Shown piece after piece: positions 185 to 8,156 of a stretch of DNA of 8,156 nt; position 1 is the stretch's first letter; each line of letters opens with the position of its first letter. The stretch comes from Metabacillus rhizolycopersici. GTDB taxonomy: Bacteria; Bacillota; Bacilli; Bacillales; Bacillaceae. Under the pieces are notes generated by a model that searched no databases, had not been told where the DNA came from, and worked only from the letters and a program-made list of their open reading frames with translations. The DNA is taken from positions 1 through 8,156 of the forward strand of contig NZ_JAIQUM010000133.1 of assembly GCF_020075705.1 (NCBI RefSeq), read 5' to 3'. The position numbers were made by a program, and so were the translations under genes.

Positions 185-220
185 TAGGTAGAAATGTGGA
201 AGTGCTTGTCTCTGCTCCCA

Positions 221-295
221 TTGCCGATAAGCAACTTTATGTTAACTAGAAATGAATACGATATACATCATTTAAACTGAATACTTATCTCAACT
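221..295 (+). repeat. Interspersed intergenic repeat, copy R1 (long-tail type)
   Basis: The core TTATGTTAACTAG (238-250) is preceded by TTGCCGATAAGC and followed by AATGAATACGATATACATC and a tail ending TTATCTCAACT. It aligns over its whole length with copy R7 (7601-7677), including the shared tail pieces ATATACAT, AACTGAAT, ACTTAT and TCAACT. It lies in the divergent gap between the desaturase and the gene at 426. It lacks the upstream hairpin seen in R2-R4. Confidence 0.75.
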
Positions 296-360
296 TAAAT
301 GTGCAAAATGGTTATGTTCAATCAAGATAATAAACCCTTGACTTTACAGGTGTTTATCCT

Positions 361-390
361 AACCAATAAACAGAATGGGGCATAGAAATA
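361..390 (+). promoter_or_regulatory. Possible sigma-K promoter of the gene at 426
   Basis: AACC at 361-364 matches the mACm -35 element of sigma-K promoters. After a 17-base spacer, CATAGAAATA (381-390) approximates the -10 CATANNNTA, with the final TA one base late. The start codon is 36 bases further on. Late mother-cell expression would suit a cysteine-rich spore-surface protein. The -10 is imperfect, so this is a suggestion. Confidence 0.33.
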
Positions 391-425
391 TAAGAAGGTA
401 AAAGTTGAAAGGATGAATACAGCAC

Positions 426-1121
426 ATGGAGTTCAAACATATTAATGGGAAACAGGAAACACTTTGTATCAAAGTTCCAAAAGTCTATGACTGGGTTGTT
501 GGACAAATTCAAGTTCCTGTTCAAAGCTTTAGAGGAACTTCTGGACTAGAAAGACTCAATTTTACTTGTGATGAAATAAATGAGCAAGTTCAAGGTGGCC
601 AACTAACTGCAGAATGTATCTTAACAGATGAAAATGGTCATCCAGTTGATCCATTAGCACCGGGATCGATCTCATGTACAGAAATAGATGGACGTAATGA
701 TGTGAATGTTATTCTTCCGACAGGGGAAACAGTCACACTACAAAAAGTAATCGTGTTAAAAAAGGGTTATTTTGTTGTTCAAATTTCAAATGTGAGAGGT
801 GAATCTTGTATATCATCCCCACAACCGTTCTCAGTTTGTGAACAATTTTTGCTTTGTGCTCCAGAAGGCACATTTTTAAAATGTACAATAACGGAATTTG
901 AGTGTAATGCTTGTTTTATGTGTAACCTGGATAACGTAGGAAATCCATCATTCCAACAAATCGATGTTTCGATTAACATGTGTCAAAATGTCCAAATGGA
1001 AAGCATCGTCACGTTAGAGATAGATGCAAATATTTGTCAACCACGTTCTGAAATAGTCGTAAATTGTCCACCAAAAAACTTACCTCCTCAATGCCCAGCC
1101 GTATTTTCAGGAACAGAATAA
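426..1121 (+). CDS. Cysteine-rich protein, probable spore coat or exosporium component
   Basis: The product has 231 residues with no signal peptide and no membrane helix. It contains 15 cysteines (about 6.5%), concentrated in the C-terminal half: single Cys near residues 14, 48 and 64, then a dense cluster including CEQFLLC and CNACFMC, and final C..PR, NCPP and QCP motifs. The N-terminal LCIKVPKVYDWVVGQIQVP and the late VTLEIDANICQPR resemble segments I associate with uncharacterised Bacillus spore-surface proteins; I cannot name the family. Cysteine-rich proteins without an export signal in Bacillus are often deposited on the forespore by the mother cell and crosslinked by disulfides, which is the inferred role. 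An in-frame TGA at 414-416 makes ATG 426 the first possible start; GAAAGGA (407-413) lies about 12 bases upstream, a rather long spacing. A sigma-K-like promoter precedes the gene and a 21-bp hairpin follows it. Confidence 0.75.
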   Translation: MEFKHINGKQETLCIKVPKVYDWVVGQIQVPVQSFRGTSGLERLNFTCDEINEQVQGGQLTAECILTDENGHPVDPLAPGSISCTEIDGRNDVNVILPTGETVTLQKVIVLKKGYFVVQISNVRGESCISSPQPFSVCEQFLLCAPEGTFLKCTITEFECNACFMCNLDNVGNPSFQQIDVSINMCQNVQMESIVTLEIDANICQPRSEIVVNCPPKNLPPQCPAVFSGTE

Positions 1122-1199
1122 GAACGATAAGAACATTGTGTTAAATGAAAAGTACTTTATGATAGGATTCTATCCTCCTTGTATAGCAGTTGGAAAAAG

Positions 1200-1242
1200 A
1201 TAATCAATAAGGGTACTCATTATGAGTACCCTTATTGATTAT
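1200..1242. terminator. Bidirectional hairpin between convergent genes
   Basis: Positions 1200-1220 and 1222-1242 are perfect 21-base inverted repeats with TCATTATGA at the apex, so the real loop opens by a few bases. The arms contain GGGTACTC/GAGTACCC in the upper stem. Leftward, the hairpin is followed on the minus strand by TCTTTTTCC, a usable T-run. Rightward the T-run is delayed (ATTTTTTG at 1251-1258). It sits 78 bases after the plus-strand stop and 20 bases after the minus-strand stop, as expected for a shared terminator. Confidence 0.8.
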
Positions 1243-1262
1243 GAATATAAATTTTTTGACCT

Positions 1263-3662
1263 TTAAGACAGGATACTACAAGGATCAGCAATAACCCTTA
1301 CTCTAAAGGAACATTGAGCAGTATTCCCAGCAGCATCTGTGGCTGTACATGTGACACGTGTTTCCCCTATAGGAAAGAAGGATCCGGAAGCTGGTGTACA
1401 AGAGAACGTAACACCTGGACCATTGCCGGTTACCGTAGGATCAGGATAGTTTACAATGGCACCATTTCTTCGGGGATCACTTCGAACAGTTATGTTATTA
1501 GAACAAGTAATGGTCAGTGGTTCGCTATCAACTACTGTCACAGTAAACGAGCAATTGCTAGTATTGCCAGCAGCATCGGTCGCGGTACAAGTCACCGTAG
1601 TCATTCCTACAGGAAAGAATGTTCCTGAAGCTGGCAAGCACGCTGCTGTCGCTCCCGGACAGTTATCACTTACCATAGGAGCCGGATAGGTGACGATCGC
1701 CCCACTTTGCCCAGGATCTTTGGATACCGTGATGTCAGCTGGACAAGTGATTACTGGCGGCTCAGTATCGTTCACTGTTACGGTAAACGAACAAGGAGCG
1801 CTTGTATTGCCAGCAGCATCCGTAGCTGTACATGTCACCATAGTCGTTCCAACGGGAAAGAGCGATCCAGAAGGTGGGGAACAAACAGATGTTGCTCCCG
1901 GACAGTTATCATTTACAGTTGGAGGTGGATAGTTCACTATCGCCCCACAAACACCAGGGTCATTATCCTGAGTGATGTTACCTGAACAGATAATGGTCGG
2001 TGGTTCCACATCGTTTACTGTGACCATAAAGGAGCATTCCGCCGATCCTCCACAAATGTCGGTAGCCGTACAAGTGACGATGGTTTCACCCACTGGAAAT
2101 AGGGATCCAGAAGCAGGGCTGCAGCTAAAAGTCACTCCAGGACAGCTGGTGCTTACAGTTGGAGGTGGATAGTTGACAATGGCTCCACATACCCCCGGGT
2201 CATTATCCTGTGTAATGTTACCAGGACAGCTGATAGTTGGGATCCGTTCTAGATCACTGATGTTGCCAAAGATATCTTGACTGTTGTTGCTCCGAGTGTC
2301 AGTCCATACGGAGATTAACTTTTCCGGTTCCGGCAAAGCTGGAGGAATAAAGGCCGAGTAGATATAATCACCAATAAATGTGCTCGGATTACCAAAGCTA
2401 GTATCAGAATTAGGGTTGAAAGAAACGTCTGTTATCCGTGAATTTGTAAATGTGGCTCCACCATTAGTCGAAACTGCTAAATAAACATCTAGAAGAGTAG
2501 AAGATTCCCGGTTTGTGTAGTAAATCACAGTTACGGTGCCACTGCATGGGGAAACTGCTACAAACGGGAAAAAATTTTGGGTATCCTCAGGACTATTATC
2601 AACACGTATTGGGGCTGACCATGTGGCTCCGCCATCATCGGAGAAAGACAAAAGGATATGAGCATTTGTTGTGCCGTAAGCCTGCCATACGGCATACACT
2701 CTTGCGAAGTTTGCAGAACCAAAACATTCTGATGTATCTACCGCAAGAAAAGCAAAGGTAGGGACACGGAATGCCCATGAAGGGACCTCTGCAGCTAGAG
2801 TCAATGGAACTCGAACAATAGCACTGACATTAACAGTTGGACCGAATGTTACCCCACCATCATCTGACCTACGAATTCGAAACGTGGCGTTAGTGAAATC
2901 TCCCTCAATCCAAGCAACATATACTTCTCCATTCGGACCTACTTGAACATTTGATCCTTGTACAAAGGGAGCTCCTCCAATTGCAGGTGTGATGGCAATT
3001 GGCGCCATCCATGTTAATCCACCATCTACAGACCTTTGAAGTAAAATTTGAGAGGTGGCTGCAGCATCATTAGTAAACCTTGTATAGCTAATATAGGCAT
3101 TCCCCTCAAATGTGCTGGCCGGAGACTTATCAAAGGCAAGATATTCTTTATCATCAAAGAAATTGTTGTTTATACCAGAAACATTAATCGCAGCAGAAAA
3201 GGTTTGCCCATCATCAACGGATCGATAAACAATGATGGATGCCCTATCTACTGTTGCTGAAACAGGTTGAACAGCGATACCAGCTAATAACCACCTATTG
3301 TTTAGATCGGCGTCTATGATTGGGTCGCCAGTATTTCTAAATCCTGCTGGAACTGGGAGAAACGAAGTCGTGAATGTGGCACCTCCATTAATAGATCTAT
3401 ATACCCCAAATTGAGGAAACCCACTTGCAAGCGTATAAGCGTGAGAAGCAGCAATAATTGATGATGGATTATTCCGATTGACCGCCACAGTAGGCTCATT
3501 TTCAGGCCGTCCATTTAATGTTGAGATTCGAAAATCTGTTGAATCTACTTGCAGTATTGATATGGATGTATTATCTTCATTTTCCTCATGTTCTTCATTT
3601 AGTTCTATAATTTGTTGCATTGGTGGTGCACTCGTTATCTTTTTTATACTTTCTTCTGACAT
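1263..3662 (-). CDS. Sialidase-type beta-propeller protein with four HYR domains
   Basis: The product has 799 residues. Residues 1-45 are polar and acidic with no signal peptide. Residues about 50-470 hold at least six BNR/Asp-box motifs of the S-x-D-G-G-x-T-F/W type: YRSINGGATF (88), YRSVDDGQTF (146), RSVDGGLTW (210), RRSDDGGVTF (264), SFSDDGGATW (339) and VSTNGGATF (397). The propeller ends WTDTRSNNSQDIFG (453). Four HYR domains of about 80 residues follow (471-551, 552-632, 633-711, 712-792), each with CPG, FPVG and VTCTATD landmarks. HYR domains are immunoglobulin-like adhesion modules. I see no sialidase arginine triad or FRIP motif, so a binding or structural role is safer than an enzyme call. 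The start ATG is preceded by AAGGGCGG, a weak Shine-Dalgarno. GC is near 50% in the sampled HYR region against about 37% in the permease gene, suggesting transfer. No sortase motif is present; surface location, perhaps on the spore, is inferred. Confidence 0.85.
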   Translation of the reverse strand: MSEESIKKITSAPPMQQIIELNEEHEENEDNTSISILQVDSTDFRISTLNGRPENEPTVAVNRNNPSSIIAASHAYTLASGFPQFGVYRSINGGATFTTSFLPVPAGFRNTGDPIIDADLNNRWLLAGIAVQPVSATVDRASIIVYRSVDDGQTFSAAINVSGINNNFFDDKEYLAFDKSPASTFEGNAYISYTRFTNDAAATSQILLQRSVDGGLTWMAPIAITPAIGGAPFVQGSNVQVGPNGEVYVAWIEGDFTNATFRIRRSDDGGVTFGPTVNVSAIVRVPLTLAAEVPSWAFRVPTFAFLAVDTSECFGSANFARVYAVWQAYGTTNAHILLSFSDDGGATWSAPIRVDNSPEDTQNFFPFVAVSPCSGTVTVIYYTNRESSTLLDVYLAVSTNGGATFTNSRITDVSFNPNSDTSFGNPSTFIGDYIYSAFIPPALPEPEKLISVWTDTRSNNSQDIFGNISDLERIPTISCPGNITQDNDPGVCGAIVNYPPPTVSTSCPGVTFSCSPASGSLFPVGETIVTCTATDICGGSAECSFMVTVNDVEPPTIICSGNITQDNDPGVCGAIVNYPPPTVNDNCPGATSVCSPPSGSLFPVGTTMVTCTATDAAGNTSAPCSFTVTVNDTEPPVITCPADITVSKDPGQSGAIVTYPAPMVSDNCPGATAACLPASGTFFPVGMTTVTCTATDAAGNTSNCSFTVTVVDSEPLTITCSNNITVRSDPRRNGAIVNYPDPTVTGNGPGVTFSCTPASGSFFPIGETRVTCTATDAAGNTAQCSFRVRVIADPCSILS
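1287..2252 (-). repeat. Four tandem HYR-encoding units of about 240 bp
   Basis: The 3' part of the propeller gene consists of four in-frame units at about 2252-2010, 2009-1767, 1766-1530 and 1529-1287. The phrase GCCAGCAGCATC with a following GTACA recurs at the DNA level. Units 1 and 2 encode an identical 23-residue stretch (GNITQDNDPG onward) but differ at several synonymous positions, so they are not recent exact copies. Confidence 0.8.
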
Positions 3663-3732
3663 GGTGTATTACCGCCCTTCTGATTATTCATAAACCAAAG
3701 TAGTTCAGGATTTTGCCTTAGTTTGATATATA

Positions 3733-3741
3733 TACCATATG
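3733..3741 (-). promoter_or_regulatory. Possible sigma-K -10 box for the HYR gene
   Basis: On the minus strand CATATGGTA (3741-3733) exactly fits the sigma-K -10 consensus CATANNNTA, about 70 bases before the start codon. No AC dinucleotide lies at the expected 16-17 base distance upstream, so the -35 is missing or poor. A short AT-rich match like this can arise by chance. Confidence 0.25.
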
Positions 3742-3832
3742 GACTCTTGTCCTTTTTCTAAAGGCTACTTTAGTATATGAACTTCCCTTGACGCGGTTCG
3801 GGCAGCTTCCTATTGCCTTTCCCATGAGAACT

Positions 3833-3859
3833 AAGGATCTTCGTTTGAAGATCCTTTTT
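3833..3859 (+). terminator. Hairpin with T-run at the front of repeat R2
   Basis: AAGGATCTTC (3833-3842), a GTTT loop and GAAGATCCTT (3847-3856) form a perfect 10-bp stem followed by TTTTTA. It looks like a rightward Rho-independent terminator. No plus-strand gene lies upstream of it, since the HYR gene reads away, so it is best seen as part of the repeat module rather than a gene terminator. Confidence 0.6.
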
Positions 3860-3910
3860 ATTACCGATAACGCCTCATTATGTTAACTAGGTTTGTATAG
3901 AGTATTCATT
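3833..3910 (+). repeat. Interspersed intergenic repeat, copy R2 (hairpin type)
   Basis: The hairpin at 3833-3856 is followed by TTATTACCGATAACGCC, then the core TTATGTTAACTAG (3878-3890), then GTTTGTATAGAGTATTCATT. The order hairpin, ATTACC.ATAA, core, TTGTATAGA.TAT.CATT is repeated in R3 about 265 bases downstream. The stretch 3780-3832 just upstream is more GC-rich and shows no gene that I can support. Confidence 0.8.
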
Positions 3911-3921
3911 TGATACTGTTT

Positions 3922-3960
3922 GTTGAAAAATAAAAAATAAAACCACCGTTTTGGTGGTTT
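3922..3960 (-). terminator. Leftward Rho-independent terminator
   Basis: Read on the minus strand, AAACCACC (3960-3953), an AAAAC loop and GGTGGTTT (3947-3940) form an 8-bp stem followed by TATTTTTTATTTTTC. This is a typical intrinsic terminator for leftward transcription. The only candidate it could serve is the 28-codon frame ending at 3986, since the next gene to the right reads rightward. Confidence 0.65.
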
Positions 3961-3985
3961 GAAATTGGGTTACATTTTTTCAATT

Positions 3986-4072
3986 TTATTTTATTCTTTT
4001 GGTTTTAGGTAAGTGCATATAAAAAGGATTTTTACCTATAATTACCAAAAACCAGATTAGAGGTATTAGCAT
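3986..4072 (-). CDS. Possible small hydrophobic peptide (28 aa)
   Basis: A minus-strand ATG at 4072 opens a 28-codon frame, MLIPLIWFLVIIGKNPFYMH then LPKTKRIK. The first 12 residues are strongly hydrophobic and the tail is basic, as in small membrane-inserted peptides. GGAGGT at 4084-4089 precedes it; the 12-base spacing is longer than ideal. The stop at 3986 is followed 25 bases later by a convincing leftward terminator with no other visible client. An in-frame TAG just upstream of the ATG excludes a longer gene. I recognise no family. The alternatives are chance or a small RNA ending at the same terminator. Confidence 0.33.
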   Translation of the reverse strand: MLIPLIWFLVIIGKNPFYMHLPKTKRIK

Positions 4073-4097
4073 AGAATACTATTACCTCCAAATTATT

Positions 4098-4176
4098 AAG
4101 ATCTTCCGGTCGAAGATCTTTTTTTATTACCTATAATTGACCTTATGTTAACTAGATTTGTATAGAATATGCATTA
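4098..4176 (+). repeat. Interspersed intergenic repeat, copy R3 (hairpin type)
   Basis: AAGATCTTC (4098-4106), loop CGGTC and GAAGATCTT (4112-4120) form a 9-bp stem followed by a run of seven T (4119-4125). Then come ATTACCTATAATTGACC, the core TTATGTTAACTAG (4143-4155) and ATTTGTATAGAATATGCATT. It matches R2 almost position by position and lies about 110 bases upstream of the permease start. Confidence 0.8.
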
Positions 4177-4284
4177 CATCCCCCTTACAAGTATTCAAAA
4201 TTGGAAAGTAGGGGAAAATGAATAACTAGATAAGATGTACAAGCTTGCGGATTAAATCACTGGGAAAAGGGGGGATTTCAGACA

Positions 4285-5406
4285 ATGGAGAGAGCCAAAA
4301 TTAGTGTCATTCAACTATTTGCCATGATGTTTTTATTTGAACTTGGGAGCGCGATAGTTGTAAGTTATGGAATAGGTGCCAAAAAAGATGCTTGGCTTGC
4401 CATTCTTTTAGCAATGTGCGGGGGAATCATCTTATTTTTTATTTATTATTTTTTATTTCGCCAATATCCAAACCTGCCATTGACCGGATATGCTAGGAAA
4501 ATATTCGGTAAATACGTTGGGTGGATAATAGGTCTATTATACGTCATATTTTTTTTGTACGAGGCTGCCCGGGGTTTACGTGACTTTGGGGATTTGCTGC
4601 TTGCGTCGACTATGCCTAATACGCCGTTATTCGTACTCAATATCTTATTCGTTCTTGCGATGTGTTATGTACTTTATCTAGGGATTGAAGTATTGGGGAG
4701 AACGACAGAAGTATTTATTGTTACCTTGCTTTTTTTTGGAGTCACAGGAAATCTTTTCGTCTATTTTTCAGGTAATGTTGAACTCCATAATTTGCAACCC
4801 TTTTTGGAAAATGGATGGAAACCCATCTTAACGACAGCCTTTCCGTTGCTTACTTTTTTCCCTTTCGGAGAAATGATCGTTTTTACCATGTTGCTTCCAT
4901 ATCTAAATCGACCAGATTTAGCTAAAAAGGTTTGGCTGTCTGCCGTCATTTCAAGTGGGCTTATCTTAAGTTATACAACAAGTTTAGATATCGCTGTTCT
5001 TGGCATCGAAGCAGTGGAGAGATCTACGTTTCCTTTGTTTTCAACGATTGGAAAAGTTAACCTTTTCGATTTTATACAAAGGCTTGATGCTGTAGTTGTC
5101 TATACCTTTCTGATTACGATGCTTTTCAAGATATCCATTTGGTTTTATTGTGCCGTAATCGGAATAGTCGATTTGTTTAAGTTGAAAAATCATCAACAAA
5201 TTGTGTTGCCAATGGGGGTTATTCTCCTTTTTTTATCTATGGAGATTGCCTCAAACTTTACGGAACATATTGAAGAAGGTTTAGACATTATAATGTATCC
5301 CCTTCACCTGCCTTTCATGGTAATCATTCCGTTGTTAATGTTGCTTATTGCTCTGATTCGTAATGGTTTCAAGAAGAATGGTAGATCGAAATCAAATGAA
5401 ACATAA
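4285..5406 (+). CDS. GerAB-family spore germination permease (B subunit), orphan
   Basis: At 373 residues this has the usual length for the GerAB/endospore permease family (APC superfamily), the inner-membrane B subunits that sense germinants with A and C partners. About ten hydrophobic helices are visible, near 8-30, 36-58, 78-97, 113-135, 143-161, 182-205, 215-236, 265-297, 305-322 and 337-359. Family-like landmarks are FPFGEM (192-197), YLNRPDL (206-212), FIQRLDAVVV (263-272), the near-C-terminal YPLHLPF and a basic tail. The start is supported by AAAAGGGGGGA (4265-4275), about 9 bases before ATG. Germinant-receptor genes normally sit in A-B-C operons, but no gerA or gerC gene adjoins: upstream is a repeat-filled gap and downstream a strong terminator. 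I found no clear sigma-G promoter. Whether it works with another locus's A and C subunits is unknown. Confidence 0.88.
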   Translation: MERAKISVIQLFAMMFLFELGSAIVVSYGIGAKKDAWLAILLAMCGGIILFFIYYFLFRQYPNLPLTGYARKIFGKYVGWIIGLLYVIFFLYEAARGLRDFGDLLLASTMPNTPLFVLNILFVLAMCYVLYLGIEVLGRTTEVFIVTLLFFGVTGNLFVYFSGNVELHNLQPFLENGWKPILTTAFPLLTFFPFGEMIVFTMLLPYLNRPDLAKKVWLSAVISSGLILSYTTSLDIAVLGIEAVERSTFPLFSTIGKVNLFDFIQRLDAVVVYTFLITMLFKISIWFYCAVIGIVDLFKLKNHQQIVLPMGVILLFLSMEIASNFTEHIEEGLDIIMYPLHLPFMVIIPLLMLLIALIRNGFKKNGRSKSNET

Positions 5407-5426
5407 TAATAATTATTCTATATTCC

Positions 5427-5463
5427 AAAGCCAACGGGTTTAAATAAATCCGTTGGCTTTTTT
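5427..5463 (+). terminator. Terminator of the permease gene
   Basis: AAAGCCAACGGGTTT (5427-5441) pairs with AAATCCGTTGGCTTT (5446-5460) through one G-T wobble, giving a 15-bp stem with a 4-base loop and a six-T run (5458-5463). It begins 20 bases after the permease stop and can also stop the converging gene that ends at 5492. Confidence 0.9.
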
Positions 5464-5491
5464 GAAGTATAAAATTTTTGGTCTATCACAG

Positions 5492-5704
5492 TTACTTTAA
5501 TAATTTTATCTCTTTATTAGTCTCCTTATCCCTTGCTCTATGTATTGCACCTAATACAATTATAAATATGAGTAAATTAAGCGTATTTATCGTATATCCG
5601 TTTAGCTGTATATATATTTCTTTTGTGTAGATAAAGCGAATAGCAAAAAATATTCCACATAATACTGATATATTGTTGTTCAAGTCTAAGATTTTTTTTA
5701 ACAT
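5492..5704 (-). CDS. Small two-helix membrane protein, unknown function
   Basis: The 70-residue product starts MLKKILDLNN. Hydrophobic segments at about 11-27 (ISVLCGIFFAIRFIY) and 38-55 (TLNLLIFIIVLGAI) are probable membrane helices, followed by a highly charged tail (RARDKETNKEIKLLK). An ATG two codons earlier (5710) is only one base from the AAGGGG Shine-Dalgarno (5712-5717), whereas the ATG at 5704 is 7 bases away, so 5704 is the preferred start. The gene is very AT-rich. It converges on the permease gene and shares its terminator. I recognise no family; small membrane proteins of this kind are common as hypotheticals in Bacillus. No promoter is clear in 5711-5813. Confidence 0.6.
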   Translation of the reverse strand: MLKKILDLNNNISVLCGIFFAIRFIYTKEIYIQLNGYTINTLNLLIFIIVLGAIHRARDKETNKEIKLLK

Positions 5705-5813
5705 GTACATACCCCTTAATTACTAATTAAAAATTATCCTTTGATTTATTTGGGGAATATATACACTTGAATTATTCTTCATCTAAGGAATTAAAGAAAT
5801 AGTATAGTATAAA

Positions 5814-5898
5814 AAAGATCTTCAAATTGAAGAACCTTTTTCAATGCCTATAAGCGTGATTATGTTAACCAAAAATGAATAACAACCTATACATTATT
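5814..5898 (+). repeat. Interspersed intergenic repeat, copy R4 (decayed hairpin, long-tail type)
   Basis: A decayed form of the hairpin (AAAGATCTTC / GAAGAACCTT, 5814-5823 and 5829-5838, two mismatches) is followed by CTTTTT, TGCCTATAAGCGTG, the core TTATGTTAACCA (5860-5871) and AAAATGAATA...CTATACATTATTT. The tail is the R1/R7 type. The right end runs across the stop codon of the minus-strand gene at 5887. Confidence 0.75.
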
Positions 5899-6126
5899 TT
5901 TTAATTCATCCATCAATTGTCGAGAACGTTTAGCATTACCCTCAGCAAAATTTCGCAATCTGTTTTGTAGTTCTTCATTGTCATGTATGCGTTCAGCCGT
6001 GATTAAGTATGTTTTCATCATTTCATTTTCTCTTTCTAACGACATTTGTAAGATTTGTTTTAGTGAATTCTTAAATAATTCATCTTCGCTGTCATAGTCA
6101 CGATCATAATCTAGTTCATGATTCAT
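5887..6126 (-). CDS. CotF-like small helical protein, putative spore-associated
   Basis: The product has 79 residues. After an acidic, tyrosine-rich N-terminus (MNHELDYDRDYDSEDE) come two amphipathic helices, about 16-47 and 51-76. They show the spacing E..NEMMKTYLITAERI...ELQNRLRNFAEGNAKRSRQL, which resembles the ferritin-like helical pair of CotF-family coat proteins. At 79 residues it would cover only one helical pair and lacks the usual C-terminal extension. GGGAGG (6133-6138) lies 6 bases before the ATG, so the start is firm. The last codons (NNV and TAG) lie inside repeat R4, so the present C-terminus appears to come from the repeat. No promoter is clear in the 496-base gap upstream. 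The CotF-like call is by pattern only; coding status is secure. Confidence 0.7.
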   Translation of the reverse strand: MNHELDYDRDYDSEDELFKNSLKQILQMSLERENEMMKTYLITAERIHDNEELQNRLRNFAEGNAKRSRQLMDELKNNV

Positions 6127-6221
6127 TCTAATCCTCCCATGATTTTATTCTTTTATGTTTTGTACATAAAAATCATCATTTATACTAAAAGACTGTTTTC
6201 GATTCTTATATCAATTTTCAG

Positions 6222-6264
6222 TACCGAGAATAAATGATTATGTTAAGTAAGGATGTATATAAAA
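6222..6264 (+). repeat. Interspersed intergenic repeat, copy R5 (degenerate)
   Basis: TACCGAGAATAAATGA, the core TTATGTTAAGTAAG (6238-6251) and GATGTATATAAAAT correspond to the ACC.ATAA, core and TGTATA.A parts of the family. The upstream hairpin is absent and the tail soon diverges. It lies immediately before the structured element at 6277-6417, in the leader of the CotF-like gene. Confidence 0.55.
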
Positions 6265-6276
6265 TCTTGATAAAAA

Positions 6277-6417
6277 CAAGGCTTTCATGCAGAAGCTAGC
6301 ATATGTAAAAGCAAAATGAAAATAAGTTGCTTTTACGCATACTAGTACGCCTAATACCAGCGAAGCTGCTATGAACCGCAATAAGAAATCGGAATCATAT
6401 TAAACCCTTGATTTTAT
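6277..6417. repeat. Hairpin-forming intergenic element, possible mobile repeat
   Basis: An imperfect 19-base inverted repeat (6296-6314 with 6327-6345; 16 of 19 positions pair; TAAAAGCAA/TTGCTTTTA at the apex; 12-base loop) is enclosed by an outer pair, TTCATGCAG (6284-6292) and CTGCTATGAA (6365-6374), with one bulged base. The nested symmetry over about 90 bases is not explained by any gene. The right end contains TAAACCCTTGATTTTA (6401-6416), which recurs with one change at 331-346. About 150-bp structured intergenic elements such as bcr1 are known in the B. cereus group; identity with one of them is a guess. Nothing else is supportable in the gap 6127-6622 apart from R5 and the open frame at 6404. 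Confidence 0.45.
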
Positions 6418-6631
6418 TATAGTTACGACTATACCCCTGTATAAAATTGGCTACCAAATCCCTAAAAGACTGTGTAACAAAATACTGTCACATAAATCCC
6501 TTGTAACAATATTCACTTCAAACGTTTTTGAGACAAATCATCTTAGGGAATATCTTCTTATTGCGGGTGGTGACATCTTGGCAGGTACTACCCCAACACA
6601 AAAAAAGCAAGGTGTATTCACCCTACTTTGA
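6404..6631 (+). other. Open frame of 75 codons without a good start
   Basis: From ACC at 6404 to the TGA at 6629-6631 the plus strand is open for 75 codons after an in-frame TAA at 6401. The translation looks protein-like near its end (HLREYLLIAGGDILAGTT), but there is no ATG or GTG and no ribosome binding site at a useful place. It could be a decayed gene fragment, the coding remnant of a mobile element or chance. The 3' end overlaps the antisense terminator and stop codon of the gene at 6623. Confidence 0.15.
6600..6629 (-). terminator. Terminator overlapping the stop codon of the 6623-6970 gene
   Basis: On the minus strand AAAGTAGGGTG (6629-6619), loop AATA and CACCTTGCTTT (6614-6604) form an 11-bp stem with two weak pairs, followed by a T-run of seven (6606-6600). 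The gene's TAG stop at 6625-6623 lies within the first arm. Confidence 0.7.
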
Positions 6632-6970
6632 AAATGGAAACCAAAAATTTATGAACATAAAAGAGGATAAAGACTGTTGCTGTTCTTTTTCTAAATAGTC
6701 AATGGCTTCTGAAATGGTCATATTGCCCTCATAAATTTCACAACAGAAATTCCAAATAGTGTCATGATAAGCTTCACTGAGTCTTGTTATTTTCAGAATG
6801 ATTTCTACTGCATCAGGTTCAACTTTGTTAAGTATATCCCTTTCAAATACATCTTCTTCATGTATAAATTTCATGATTGATACACGCTGTTTGAATAAAT
6901 CCTCTACAACCGATCTAGTTAAAGCGTCCACAGCCATCACCTCACCGTATAACTTCGACAAAGTAATCAA
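6623..6970 (-). CDS. Acidic helical protein of unknown function
   Basis: The longest reading gives 115 residues from a TTG at 6970, with GAGGGG 11 bases upstream. The ATG at 6937 has a Shine-Dalgarno too close, and the GTG at 6931 has an excellent AGGTGAT at good spacing, giving 102 residues. The true start is therefore uncertain. The protein is largely helical and acidic (VEDLFKQRVSIMKFIHEEDVFERD; EPDAVEIILKITRLSEAYHD; FCCEIYEGNMTISEAIDYLE), with an aromatic C-terminus (FMFINFWFPFSK). There is no signal peptide or clear membrane helix, and I recognise no family. It stands alone: repeat R6 lies upstream and its own terminator overlaps the stop codon. Confidence 0.6.
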   Translation of the reverse strand: MITLSKLYGEVMAVDALTRSVVEDLFKQRVSIMKFIHEEDVFERDILNKVEPDAVEIILKITRLSEAYHDTIWNFCCEIYEGNMTISEAIDYLEKEQQQSLSSFMFINFWFPFSK

Positions 6971-7079
6971 GTTCCCTGCATCCCCTCAGAACGCACAGAA
7001 AGCCCATACAACGTTTTTAGTCTATTACCCTTAAAGTTTATAACAATCCTTAGAGACGAATCTGAGGAGGTCTTATTTG

Positions 7080-7127
7080 ATTACCTATAAGCGTGATTAT
7101 GTGAACTAGTTTTTTATAGAGTATACA
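7080..7127 (+). repeat. Interspersed intergenic repeat, copy R6
   Basis: ATTACCTATAAGCGTGA is identical to R4 over CCTATAAGCGTGATTATG. It is followed by the core TTATGTGAACTAG (7098-7110) and TTTTTTATAGAGTATACA, the R2/R3 tail type. The position of the upstream hairpin is occupied by an unrelated GAGGAGGTCTTATTTG stretch. It lies in the divergent gap between the genes at 6970 and 7268. Confidence 0.75.
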
Positions 7128-7267
7128 CGCAAAGTTTGTTTGGATTTGTAAAAAAATGTCGTAAGTTTGAATTTTCAAAAAGGGAAGTTCAAAACGATTT
7201 ACATGTTACACTTTTTTTAAGAGTTCATACACGTTTTGAAAAACACAAATGAAATGAGTGGATTACT

Positions 7268-7504
7268 ATGTTAGTAGAAGACTTAATACATCGTTTTGTA
7301 CTAGTAAAAAAGCGAAACCCATTACATGCCAATGAATTACTAGATTATATTCAAAAAAGTTATATTTATGGGGAATTGTCTATTGTTGAATACAAAAAAC
7401 TTTTTTTTGAACTGGACAAACAGGAAGCGAAAAAACCAAGCTCATTTTTTGTGAAAATAGGATCTTTTGATTTTGAAAAGTATAAATTAAGTTCTACAAT
7501 CTAA
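7268..7504 (+). CDS. YppF-like small protein
   Basis: The 78-residue product matches the YppF-like family pattern: a basic N-terminal helix (LIHRFVLVKKRNP), then HANELLDYIQKSYIYGELSIVEYKKLFFELDKQ (about residues 20-52), corresponding to the family's ANELLDFA..xYI.GEISI..YR.L..EL signature. B. subtilis YppF is about 60 residues; this one has an extra tail of about 20 residues (SFFVKIGSFDFEKYKLSSTI). The function of the family is unknown and no enzyme is implied. The Shine-Dalgarno is weak (GAGTGG, 7256-7261, 6 bases from ATG). It is monocistronic, with R6 upstream and R7 downstream. No convincing promoter is seen in 7110-7267. Confidence 0.75.
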   Translation: MLVEDLIHRFVLVKKRNPLHANELLDYIQKSYIYGELSIVEYKKLFFELDKQEAKKPSSFFVKIGSFDFEKYKLSSTI

Positions 7505-7600
7505 CAAATCACACTTTTAATTAACTCTATATATATTCATGTTTAGTTAACAATTATCGGCAAAAAAGAGTTGTTTACTTTTTAGATACCTAATCCTTTT

Positions 7601-7677
7601 TTGCTAATAATATCTGATTATGTAAACTAAGAATGAAGATTATATACATTATTTGAACTGAATGACTTATATCAACT
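7601..7677 (+). repeat. Interspersed intergenic repeat, copy R7 (long-tail type)
   Basis: The core TTATGTAAACTAAG (7618-7631) is followed by AATGAAGATTATATACATT, ATTTGAACTGAATGACTTAT and ATCAACT. It matches R1 along the whole tail with a few substitutions and short gaps. No upstream hairpin is present. The rest of the gap 7505-7757 holds AT-rich sequence and an 8-bp inverted repeat (7730-7737 with 7751-7758) at the IS boundary. Confidence 0.75.
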
Positions 7678-7785: not shown

Positions 7786-7830
7786 AGGCAATTGAAAGTT
7801 CGATTATATCGAACTTTCAATTGCCTTTTT
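7786..7830 (+). terminator. Insulating hairpin inside the IS left end
   Basis: Perfect 19-base arms (7786-7804 and 7808-7826, containing GCAATTGAAAG/CTTTCAATTGC) with a 3-base loop are followed by TTTTT (7826-7830). Placed between the IS tip and the transposase start, it would stop transcription entering from outside. This is a common device for keeping transposase expression low, although the role here is inferred. Confidence 0.85.
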
Positions 7831-7872: not shown

Positions 7873-8156
7873 ATGATTTCAAATCAAGAGTCTCTTAATC
7901 TTAGCCTATATGCAGCGATATACAATATCGTTGTGCCCAAAAATAATATGCTTCGTCAAATTAACGAATTGGTCGACTTTTCCTTCATTCTCGAAGAATT
8001 AAAAACAAAATATTGTCTGGATAATGGTTGTAATGCTATACCACCAATTCGAATGTTCAAATATTTATTGCTTAAATCTATCTATGATTTATCAGATGTA
8101 GATATAGTTGAACGTTCTCAATATGATATGTCATTTAAATATTTTCTCGATATGGC
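7873..8156 (+). CDS. IS1182-family transposase, N-terminal 94 codons (partial)
   Basis: The frame opens at ATG 7873, with AGGTGAT at 7860-7866 giving ideal spacing, and runs off the window end with no stop. It begins MISNQESLNLSLYAAIYNIV and contains NNMLRQINELVDFSFILEEL, IPPIRMFKYLLLKSIYDLSD and VERSQYDMSFKYFLDM. This PPxRMFKYLLL...LSDxDxVERxxYDMSFKYFL pattern is the hallmark N-terminal domain of IS1182-type DDE transposases. The DDE catalytic residues would lie beyond the window. No frameshift is seen in the visible part. Confidence 0.85.
   Translation, partial: MISNQESLNLSLYAAIYNIVVPKNNMLRQINELVDFSFILEELKTKYCLDNGCNAIPPIRMFKYLLLKSIYDLSDVDIVERSQYDMSFKYFLDM

What the first reader, a model, noticed from the sequence alone, without database searches (positions are those of the whole stretch)
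221..7677. Seven same-orientation copies of an intergenic repeat within 7.5 kb
Copies at 221, 3833, 4098, 5814, 6222, 7080 and 7601 share ACC.ATAAgc followed by TTATGTTAACTAG and an AT-rich tail with TATA.A.TAT.CAT. All lie on the plus strand regardless of neighbouring gene direction. All sit in gaps containing a gene's 5' end; the two convergent gaps (1122-1262, 5407-5491) have none. This density and polarity suggest a dispersed element or a functional intergenic signal. It may be one of the bcr families known in the B. cereus group.
Basis: partly seen in the sequence, partly recalled or inferred. Interest (0 to 1): 0.75.

Follow-up and report, generated by a model that had tools for sequence, protein, structure and literature searches.

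The report
Integron-like array of Xer cassettes
The seven repeats look like recombination sites of the kind cells use to separate doubled chromosomes; in relatives of Bacillus they stand in long one-way rows and mark off small gene cassettes that appear to be lost, gained and swapped, much like integrons but probably run by ordinary housekeeping enzymes.

Summary
The seven repeats are real, all on the plus strand, and are dif-like Xer sites: 11-bp XerC arm (like ATTACC[T/G]ATAA), 6-7 bp spacer, 11-bp XerD arm (like TTATGTTAACT), in 6 of 7 followed by a recognisable 15-bp dyad (TGTATAnnnTATACA). A matrix trained on Priestia plasmids without the window finds exactly these seven. In Priestia and Peribacillus-like replicons such sites form long, mostly one-way arrays (337 of 379 neighbour pairs co-oriented), rarely inside ORFs (6 of 404), cutting DNA into cassettes of median 1.1 kb. 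Homology between arrays switches at the core. Best single case: in 31 kb compared, two P. megaterium plasmids differ only by one 601-bp cassette; flanks of 15,365 and 15,596 bp match without mismatch, and the remaining site is a hybrid joined within 9 bp at the spacer/XerD-arm border. Five of ten array plasmids show no tyrosine recombinase, so host XerCD probably acts in trans (inferred). Acinetobacter dif modules are the nearest kind, but alternate in orientation; these do not. Listings of ten literature searches showed no such system in Bacillota. The bcr idea is not supported.

The parts
220..247 (+). Xer site 1: XerC arm ATTGCCGATAA, spacer GCAACT, XerD arm TTATGTTAACT
   Evidence: core score 33.3, dyad score 15.2
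253..267 (.). dyad of site 1 (TGAATACGATATACA)
3833..3856 (+). terminator-like hairpin upstream of site 2, followed by a T-run on the + side
   Evidence: -13.5 kcal/mol; 0 of 200 shuffles as stable
3860..3888 (+). Xer site 2 (7-bp spacer CGCCTCA)
   Evidence: 34.1; dyad 15.7
3894..3908 (.). dyad of site 2 (TGTATAGAGTATTCA)
4098..4120 (+). terminator-like hairpin upstream of site 3, followed by a T-run on the + side
   Evidence: -9.7 kcal/mol; 6 of 200 shuffles as stable
4126..4153 (+). Xer site 3 (spacer TTGACC)
   Evidence: 32.1; dyad 14.9
4159..4173 (.). dyad of site 3 (TGTATAGAATATGCA)
5812..5841 (.). weaker hairpin upstream of site 4
   Evidence: -6.9 kcal/mol; 5 of 200 shuffles as stable
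5843..5870 (+). Xer site 4 (spacer GCGTGA); dyad not recognisable by score
   Evidence: 26.8; dyad -3.1
6220..6248 (+). Xer site 5 (7-bp spacer TAAATGA)
   Evidence: 26.3; dyad 8.0
7080..7107 (+). Xer site 6 (spacer GCGTGA, same as site 4)
   Evidence: 31.9; dyad 13.1
7113..7127 (.). dyad of site 6 (TTTATAGAGTATACA)
7600..7628 (+). Xer site 7 (7-bp spacer TATCTGA; XerD arm TTATGTAAACT)
   Evidence: 20.3; dyad 10.4
7634..7648 (.). dyad of site 7 (TGAAGATTATATACA)
237..3870 (.). cassette 1, XerD arm of site 1 to XerC arm of site 2: BMQ_0737-family spore coat protein (426-1121 +) and a 799-aa HYR/BNR repeat protein (1263-3662 -)
3878..4136 (.). cassette 2: no ORF of 60 aa or more
4143..5853 (.). 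cassette 3: spore germination permease (4285-5406 +) and a 72-aa ORF (5492-5710 -)
   Evidence: PF03845, E 3.7e-72
5860..6230 (.). cassette 4: 79-aa ORF (5887-6126 -)
6238..7090 (.). cassette 5: 115-aa ORF (6623-6970 -)
7097..7610 (.). cassette 6: YppF-like 78-aa protein (7268-7504 +)
   Evidence: PF14178, E 1e-15

Best explanation
The repeats are dif-type XerC/XerD recombination sites standing head to tail, and the DNA between neighbouring sites is a set of gene cassettes. Each cassette starts with an XerD arm, usually plus a dyad, and ends, often after a hairpin, with an XerC arm. The host recombinases (XerC = CodV, XerD = RipX) pair two directly repeated sites, exchange strands within the core and excise the cassette; the reverse reaction, or a cointegrate followed by resolution, puts cassettes into other sites on plasmids or chromosome. 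Variable spacers probably limit which sites pair. Hairpins at cassette ends probably insulate transcription, so genes can face either way. The dyad probably binds an accessory protein. Shown from sequence: core architecture, array polarity, non-coding position, homology switch at the core, movement of whole cassettes, one exact cassette gain or loss with a hybrid site. Inferred: catalysis by host XerCD, circular intermediates, the roles of spacer, dyad and hairpins.
For: Chromosomal dif regions from 20 genomes have the same arms with spacer TATATA (19) or TGTATA (1) (the regions were chosen by a pattern that fixes the inner arm bases, so only the outer bases are an independent match). A dif query with up to 3 mismatches gives one place in each of 4 genomes, in P. 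megaterium KF18 at 2,562,206 of 5,155,594. Polarity: 337 co-oriented and 42 opposed neighbour pairs in pieces with 5 or more sites; shuffles mean 258.7, max 287 of 1000. Position: 0 of 76 sites in annotated CDS of eight stretches (the gene tables are incomplete); 6 of 404 in ORFs of 90+ codons at coding fraction 0.63. Dyad: 257 of 402 sites against 163 of 19,926 non-coding background points (part of the sites trained the matrix). Alignment ends: 121 of 1,916 within 20 bp of a core, against 29.4 +- 6.1 (max 46 of 200) for random non-coding points. 35 of 49 cassette-end families with 2 or more sites are joined to two or more start families, 28 of 44 start families to two or more end families (single-linkage families, some may rest on shared hairpins). 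21 cassette pairs are similar over at least 75% of both with both neighbours different (7 more share one neighbour, 12 both). Exact gain or loss: NZ_CP085417 against NZ_CP085428, 601 bp, flanks 15,365 and 15,596 bp with 0 mismatches, junction within 9 bp; NZ_CP073297 has the arrangement of NZ_CP085428. No PF00589 match in 5 of 10 array plasmids, including a 5-kb one with 1 site and a 109-kb one with 25; KF18 has chromosomal XerD and XerC over NCBIfam cut-offs.
Against: No experiment. Spacers do not travel cleanly with either side: the pair-level rise at positions 1-3 (0.83, 0.77, 0.71) falls to 0.53, 0.37, 0.34 when families count once (background 0.26, 0.31, 0.28), and the bootstrap interval of positions 1-3 minus 4-5 includes zero on both sides. 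In the closely related pair NZ_CP092388 / NZ_CP058265 only 3 of 56 listed alignment ends lay within 60 bp of a site. In a second near-identical pair (NZ_CP085418 / NZ_CP085429) the length difference looked at lies in repetitive sequence between two sites, not at a site. The single exact event could be slippage across 9 identical bases. Five of ten plasmids do carry a tyrosine recombinase, and serine recombinases were not searched for. The window's species, and whether it is plasmid or chromosome, are unknown.
Confidence: 0.85

Rival explanations
1. The sites are Xer multimer-resolution sites of plasmids; arrays are scars of repeated plasmid fusion, and single cassettes do not move as units.
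For: Small plasmids carry sites too: 1 on 5 kb, 3 on 7.4 kb, 7 on 10.2 kb. Resolving dimers is the known task of Xer sites (passages of PMC5357621).
Against: Cassettes have a median of 1.1 kb, short for replicons; 21 whole-cassette pairs with both neighbours different; exact loss or gain of a 601-bp cassette that has no annotated CDS and no ORF over 54 aa.
Confidence: 0.12
2. A plasmid-encoded tyrosine recombinase, not host XerCD, recombines the sites.
For: Phage_integrase-family proteins lie on five of ten plasmids: 314-334 aa frames on W02, W06, W07, W08 and a 392-aa frame on W10; one lies beside rep on CP109763.
Against: None on the other five; the core is dif-like; the one such plasmid enzyme of this group that was tested (CP109763) is far below the XerC, XerD and integron integrase cut-offs. 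A recombinase on another replicon of the same cell could still act in trans.
Confidence: 0.12
3. Homologous recombination or replication slippage between short direct repeats moves the DNA; the repeats are conserved for another reason, such as regulation.
For: The two sites flanking the 601-bp cassette give alignments that overlap by 43 bp; dyad and hairpins look regulatory.
Against: Arms match chromosomal dif; homology switches at the core more than at random non-coding points; genes lie on either strand, 52 opposite and 48 same, which a promoter-type signal does not predict.
Confidence: 0.07
4. A self-spreading repeat (MITE, REP or bcr type).
For: Many copies, intergenic position.
Against: Flanks on one side move with the site as cassettes; core matches dif; arrays share a polarity.
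Confidence: 0.02

Closest known systems
Acinetobacter pdif / dif modules
   Same: Plasmid sites made of XerC and XerD binding sites with a 6-bp spacer; modules shuffled with the crossover within the site; excision there also needs directly oriented sites with like spacers (passages of PMC13141974).
   Different: [quoted passage not shown] here sites are mostly head to tail, with long arrays, a dyad on the XerD side and hairpins, in Bacillota.
Integron cassette arrays
   Same: Long head-to-tail rows of small cassettes, recombination sites in one polarity.
   Different: dif-type core; no tyrosine recombinase match on half of the array plasmids; genes on either strand. Features of integrons are recalled, not taken from a call.
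Chromosomal dif of Bacillaceae
   Same: Nearly the same arms.
   Different: dif here has a near-constant TATATA spacer and no dyad beside it by eye in 20 of 20 (two scored, -7.5 and -4.4); array sites have 190 different spacers among 375.
Plasmid resolution sites cer and psi (recalled)
   Same: Xer core beside a binding site for an accessory protein.
   Different: Accessory sequences there lie on the XerC side (recalled); here the dyad is on the XerD side and its binder is unknown.

Membership tests
dif-type XerCD site | 11-bp XerC arm, about 6-bp spacer, 11-bp XerD arm matching host dif | tested here: met
   window spacers 6 bp (4 sites) or 7 bp (3 sites); the window's own host dif could not be seen
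dif-type XerCD site | host encodes XerC and XerD | tested here: met
   in P. megaterium KF18; not testable for the window's unknown host
dif-type XerCD site | cleavage and strand exchange by XerC/XerD | not testable with these tools
   only a sequence footprint
Acinetobacter dif modules | pdif sites in alternating inverse orientation (C and D modules) | tested here: not met
   337 co-oriented against 42 opposed neighbour pairs; window 7 of 7 the same
Acinetobacter dif modules | modules exchanged with crossover inside the site | tested here: met
   one exact event and 21 moved cassette pairs
Acinetobacter dif modules | Rep_3/OrfX plasmid backbone | not tested
   replicons typed rep_cluster_237 or 385 by PLSDB where typed; not compared with Rep_3
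Integron | integron integrase linked to the array | tested here: not met
   no PF00589 match on 5 of 10 plasmids; four recombinases tested (two chromosomal, one from CP109763, one from a KF18 plasmid) are below the TIGR02249 integron integrase cut-off; those of W06, W07, W08 and W10 were not tested
Integron | attC sites recombined as folded single strands | not tested
   cores were not folded
bcr repeats | match to bcr consensus, B. cereus group | not tested

The most novel reading that the evidence does not exclude
Bacillaceae have a third cassette-capture system beside integrons and Acinetobacter dif modules: head-to-tail Xer cassettes with insulating hairpins and a dyad-bound accessory factor, run by housekeeping XerCD, that shuffle small genes, spore genes among them, between the many plasmids and the chromosome of one cell.
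Probability: 0.6. Interest if true: 0.9.

Novelty: new variant of a known kind. Interest (0 to 1): 0.8.

Why it matters
It would show that the chromosome dimer-resolution machinery supports integron-like gene cassette arrays in Gram-positive bacteria, with up to 38 sites on one replicon of P. megaterium, a common production host. It would help explain how its large set of plasmids shuffles small and sporulation-related genes, and it makes direct tests possible: which spacers pair, what binds the dyad, and how directly repeated Xer sites are kept from collapsing.

Tried and rejected
bcr or other self-spreading repeat: set aside because the core matches dif and flanking cassettes switch partners. 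Promoter or operator: gap types and gene strands show no clear bias. Replication polarity like Chi or KOPS: rejected as a whole-replicon rule because NZ_CP085446 carries blocks in both directions; local polarity only. Spacer as a block travelling with one arm: suggested by pair counts, not upheld per family. Avoidance of identical spacers between neighbours: none seen, 8 of 314 adjacent against 51 of 2,303 non-adjacent pairs. Dyad binder: of the exact chromosomal dyads of KF18 listed, all but three lie at 1.70-1.89 Mb, in or near the array island; two overlapping ones outside it lie between a GntR-type regulator and an amino-acid permease, both named by eye, a lead only. Deletion triples: 11 found, but several rest on shared hairpins, so they are not counted as evidence. 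A first rotation control of alignment ends (40 of 786 against 7.3) was replaced by the non-coding control.
Full report
Observation. The window (8,156 bp, 36% GC) holds seven copies of a composite repeat, all on the + strand. Read as a Xer site each is an 11-bp arm like ATTACC[T/G]ATAA, a spacer of 6 bp (sites 1, 3, 4, 6) or 7 bp (sites 2, 5, 7) and an 11-bp arm like TTATGTTAACT.

Relatives. A search of the plasmid collection with one repeat and its flanks found 245 records at E up to 10, 160 of them Priestia and 1 labelled Bacillus; 65 Escherichia records were not followed up and may be chance. From 116 sites of ten plasmids and the window, 110 of them with 6-bp spacers, the consensus is TnCCKATAA, six spacer bases ending mostly in A, TTATGTTAACT, a few bases, TGTATAnnnTATACA, then A-rich DNA. 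A matrix trained without the window recovers exactly the seven window sites.

What the core is. Twenty chromosomal regions, fetched because they match the inner arm bases, read ACTTCCTATAA or variants of it, TATATA (19) or TGTATA (1), TTATGT[T/A]AACT, and show by eye no dyad after them. A dif query with up to three mismatches hits once in each of four genomes. A review states that the B. subtilis dif is 28 bp with two 11-bp half-sites and a 6-bp centre, served by CodV and RipX (passages of PMC5357621). So the array sites carry dif-like arms, but with 190 different spacers among 375 sites.

Arrays. In 25 replicons or pieces (ten plasmids and the window; seven more KF18 plasmids or parts; seven chromosome or contig pieces of KF18, strain FJAT-29882 and P. 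loiseleuriae) 412 sites score 13 or more, two of them chromosomal dif; in pieces with at least five sites neighbours share orientation 337 times and differ 42 times. Examples: 15 of 15 one way on CP109763, 7 of 7 on a 10-kb plasmid, 28 of 32 on NZ_CP092388; NZ_CP085446 carries both directions, 10 and 15. G355 is taken to be strain KF18 because one contig repeats the site positions of NZ_CP085446 (KF18) and others have the lengths of neighbouring accessions. Sites avoid genes; genes lie on either strand, 52 opposite and 48 same. Cassettes, taken between co-oriented neighbours less than 8 kb apart, have a median of 1,112 bp (309 cassettes). In Peribacillus-type arrays a hairpin with A and T tracts precedes many cores (by eye); in the window hairpins precede 3 of 7 cores, two of them followed by a T-run on the + side; in Priestia hairpins are seen by eye before the core and after the dyad in examples. 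In FJAT-29882 ten array sites lie about 40-68 kb from the chromosomal dif, on its strand.

Recombination footprint. Among 375 sites, 180 pairs are alike upstream only, 110 downstream only and 31 on both sides (the one-sided classes were chosen for unlike outer flanks, so the information lies in where the change falls). With each family counted once, pairs alike downstream only have XerC arms and upstream flanks at random level (0.65 and 0.36 against 0.63 and 0.33) but XerD-side flanks at 0.78 against 0.48; pairs alike upstream only have XerC arms at 0.85 against 0.63 and fall to 0.57, 0.46 and 0.36 beyond the XerD arm, still a little above random (0.48, 0.38, 0.30). Within the spacer, family-averaged identity is mostly near background; the clearest rises are position 1 with the upstream side (0.53 against 0.26) and position 6 with the downstream side (0.92 against 0.58). 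Alignment ends cluster at cores about four-fold over random non-coding points. Twenty-one cassette pairs are alike as wholes with both neighbours different, for example 732 bp at 97.8% within one FJAT-29882 contig and 1,439 bp at 95.6% between two KF18 plasmids.

One exact event. NZ_CP085428 (strain F16) and NZ_CP073297 (HT517) hold sites A and B 601 bp apart; NZ_CP085417 (CK7) has one site there. Its XerC arm and spacer are those of A and its XerD arm and tail those of B; 15,365 bp on the left and 15,596 bp on the right match without a mismatch; the switch lies in 9 shared bases spanning the spacer/XerD-arm border. About 31 kb of each 152-kb plasmid was compared; the whole lengths differ by 322 bp, so other differences exist elsewhere. 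Gain or loss cannot be told. This was one of two near-identical pairs examined; the other's difference was not at a site. A less close pair, NZ_CP092388 and NZ_CP058265, had only 3 of 56 listed alignment ends near sites.

Enzyme. Five of ten array plasmids have no Phage_integrase match; five have one. KF18 has chromosomal XerD (411 bits, cut-off 329.6; it also passes the XerC cut-off with 345) and XerC (353, cut-off 335). Host XerCD in trans is the simplest reading; it is inferred.

Distribution. An exact-pattern census found a match in 53 of 397 genomes drawn from one order; about twenty matches have the spacer TATATA and are taken as dif, and 9 genomes have three or more matches. Metabacillus fastidiosus has 56 matches at up to one mismatch (control 6), many with an AAAA-type XerC arm.

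The window. Six whole cassettes can be read: a BMQ_0737-family spore coat protein with an HYR/BNR repeat protein; a unit of 266 bp without an ORF of 60 aa; a spore germination permease with a small ORF; two units with one small ORF each; a YppF-like protein. Its hairpin-plus-site units are most like Peribacillus-type loci (87% over 77 bp to L088, 84% over 75 bp to L094). Host and replicon are unknown.

Literature. Their listings, some capped at 15-20 of more than 100 papers, showed no Xer or dif cassette system in Bacillota; 'megaterium' with 'XerCD' gave 0 papers. Passages only were seen of PMC13141974, PMC6449649 and PMC5357621; PMC94974 is not held. Absence from this library is not absence from print.

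Verdict. A real, polar array of dif-type sites bounding mobile cassettes; a new variant of the Xer-module kind.

Noticed in passing
L165; FJAT-29882 chromosome 1.70-1.77 Mb: Array sites lie within about 70 kb of chromosomal dif, on the same strand. The strain is titled Paenibacillus, but its sites and dif flank look like those of Peribacillus loiseleuriae; it may be mislabelled.
   Followed up: partly
G355 chromosome about 1.76-1.89 Mb: P. megaterium KF18 carries a chromosomal array island some 0.7 Mb from dif at 2.56 Mb.
   Followed up: partly
window 1336-2240: Four repeats spaced 240-243 bp in the gene of the 799-aa protein, which has HYR domains.
   Followed up: no
window 7786-7826 and 7873-8156: Perfect 19-bp hairpin ahead of a DUF772-type transposase start, just after site 7.
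   Followed up: no
G355:C1:2148189-2148210 and G296:C4:214965-214986: Double TGTATA/TATACA operator-like sequence between a GntR-type regulator and an amino-acid permease (both named by eye), conserved in two genomes.
   Followed up: partly
L110 and genome G008: Metabacillus fastidiosus: 56 sites at up to one mismatch, many with an AAAA-type XerC arm; possibly a separate lineage of the system.
   Followed up: no
L005 5894-6310: A 10-kb P. megaterium plasmid with seven sites also carries an arr gene.
   Followed up: no
65 Escherichia plasmid records matched the repeat query weakly; cause unknown.
   Followed up: no
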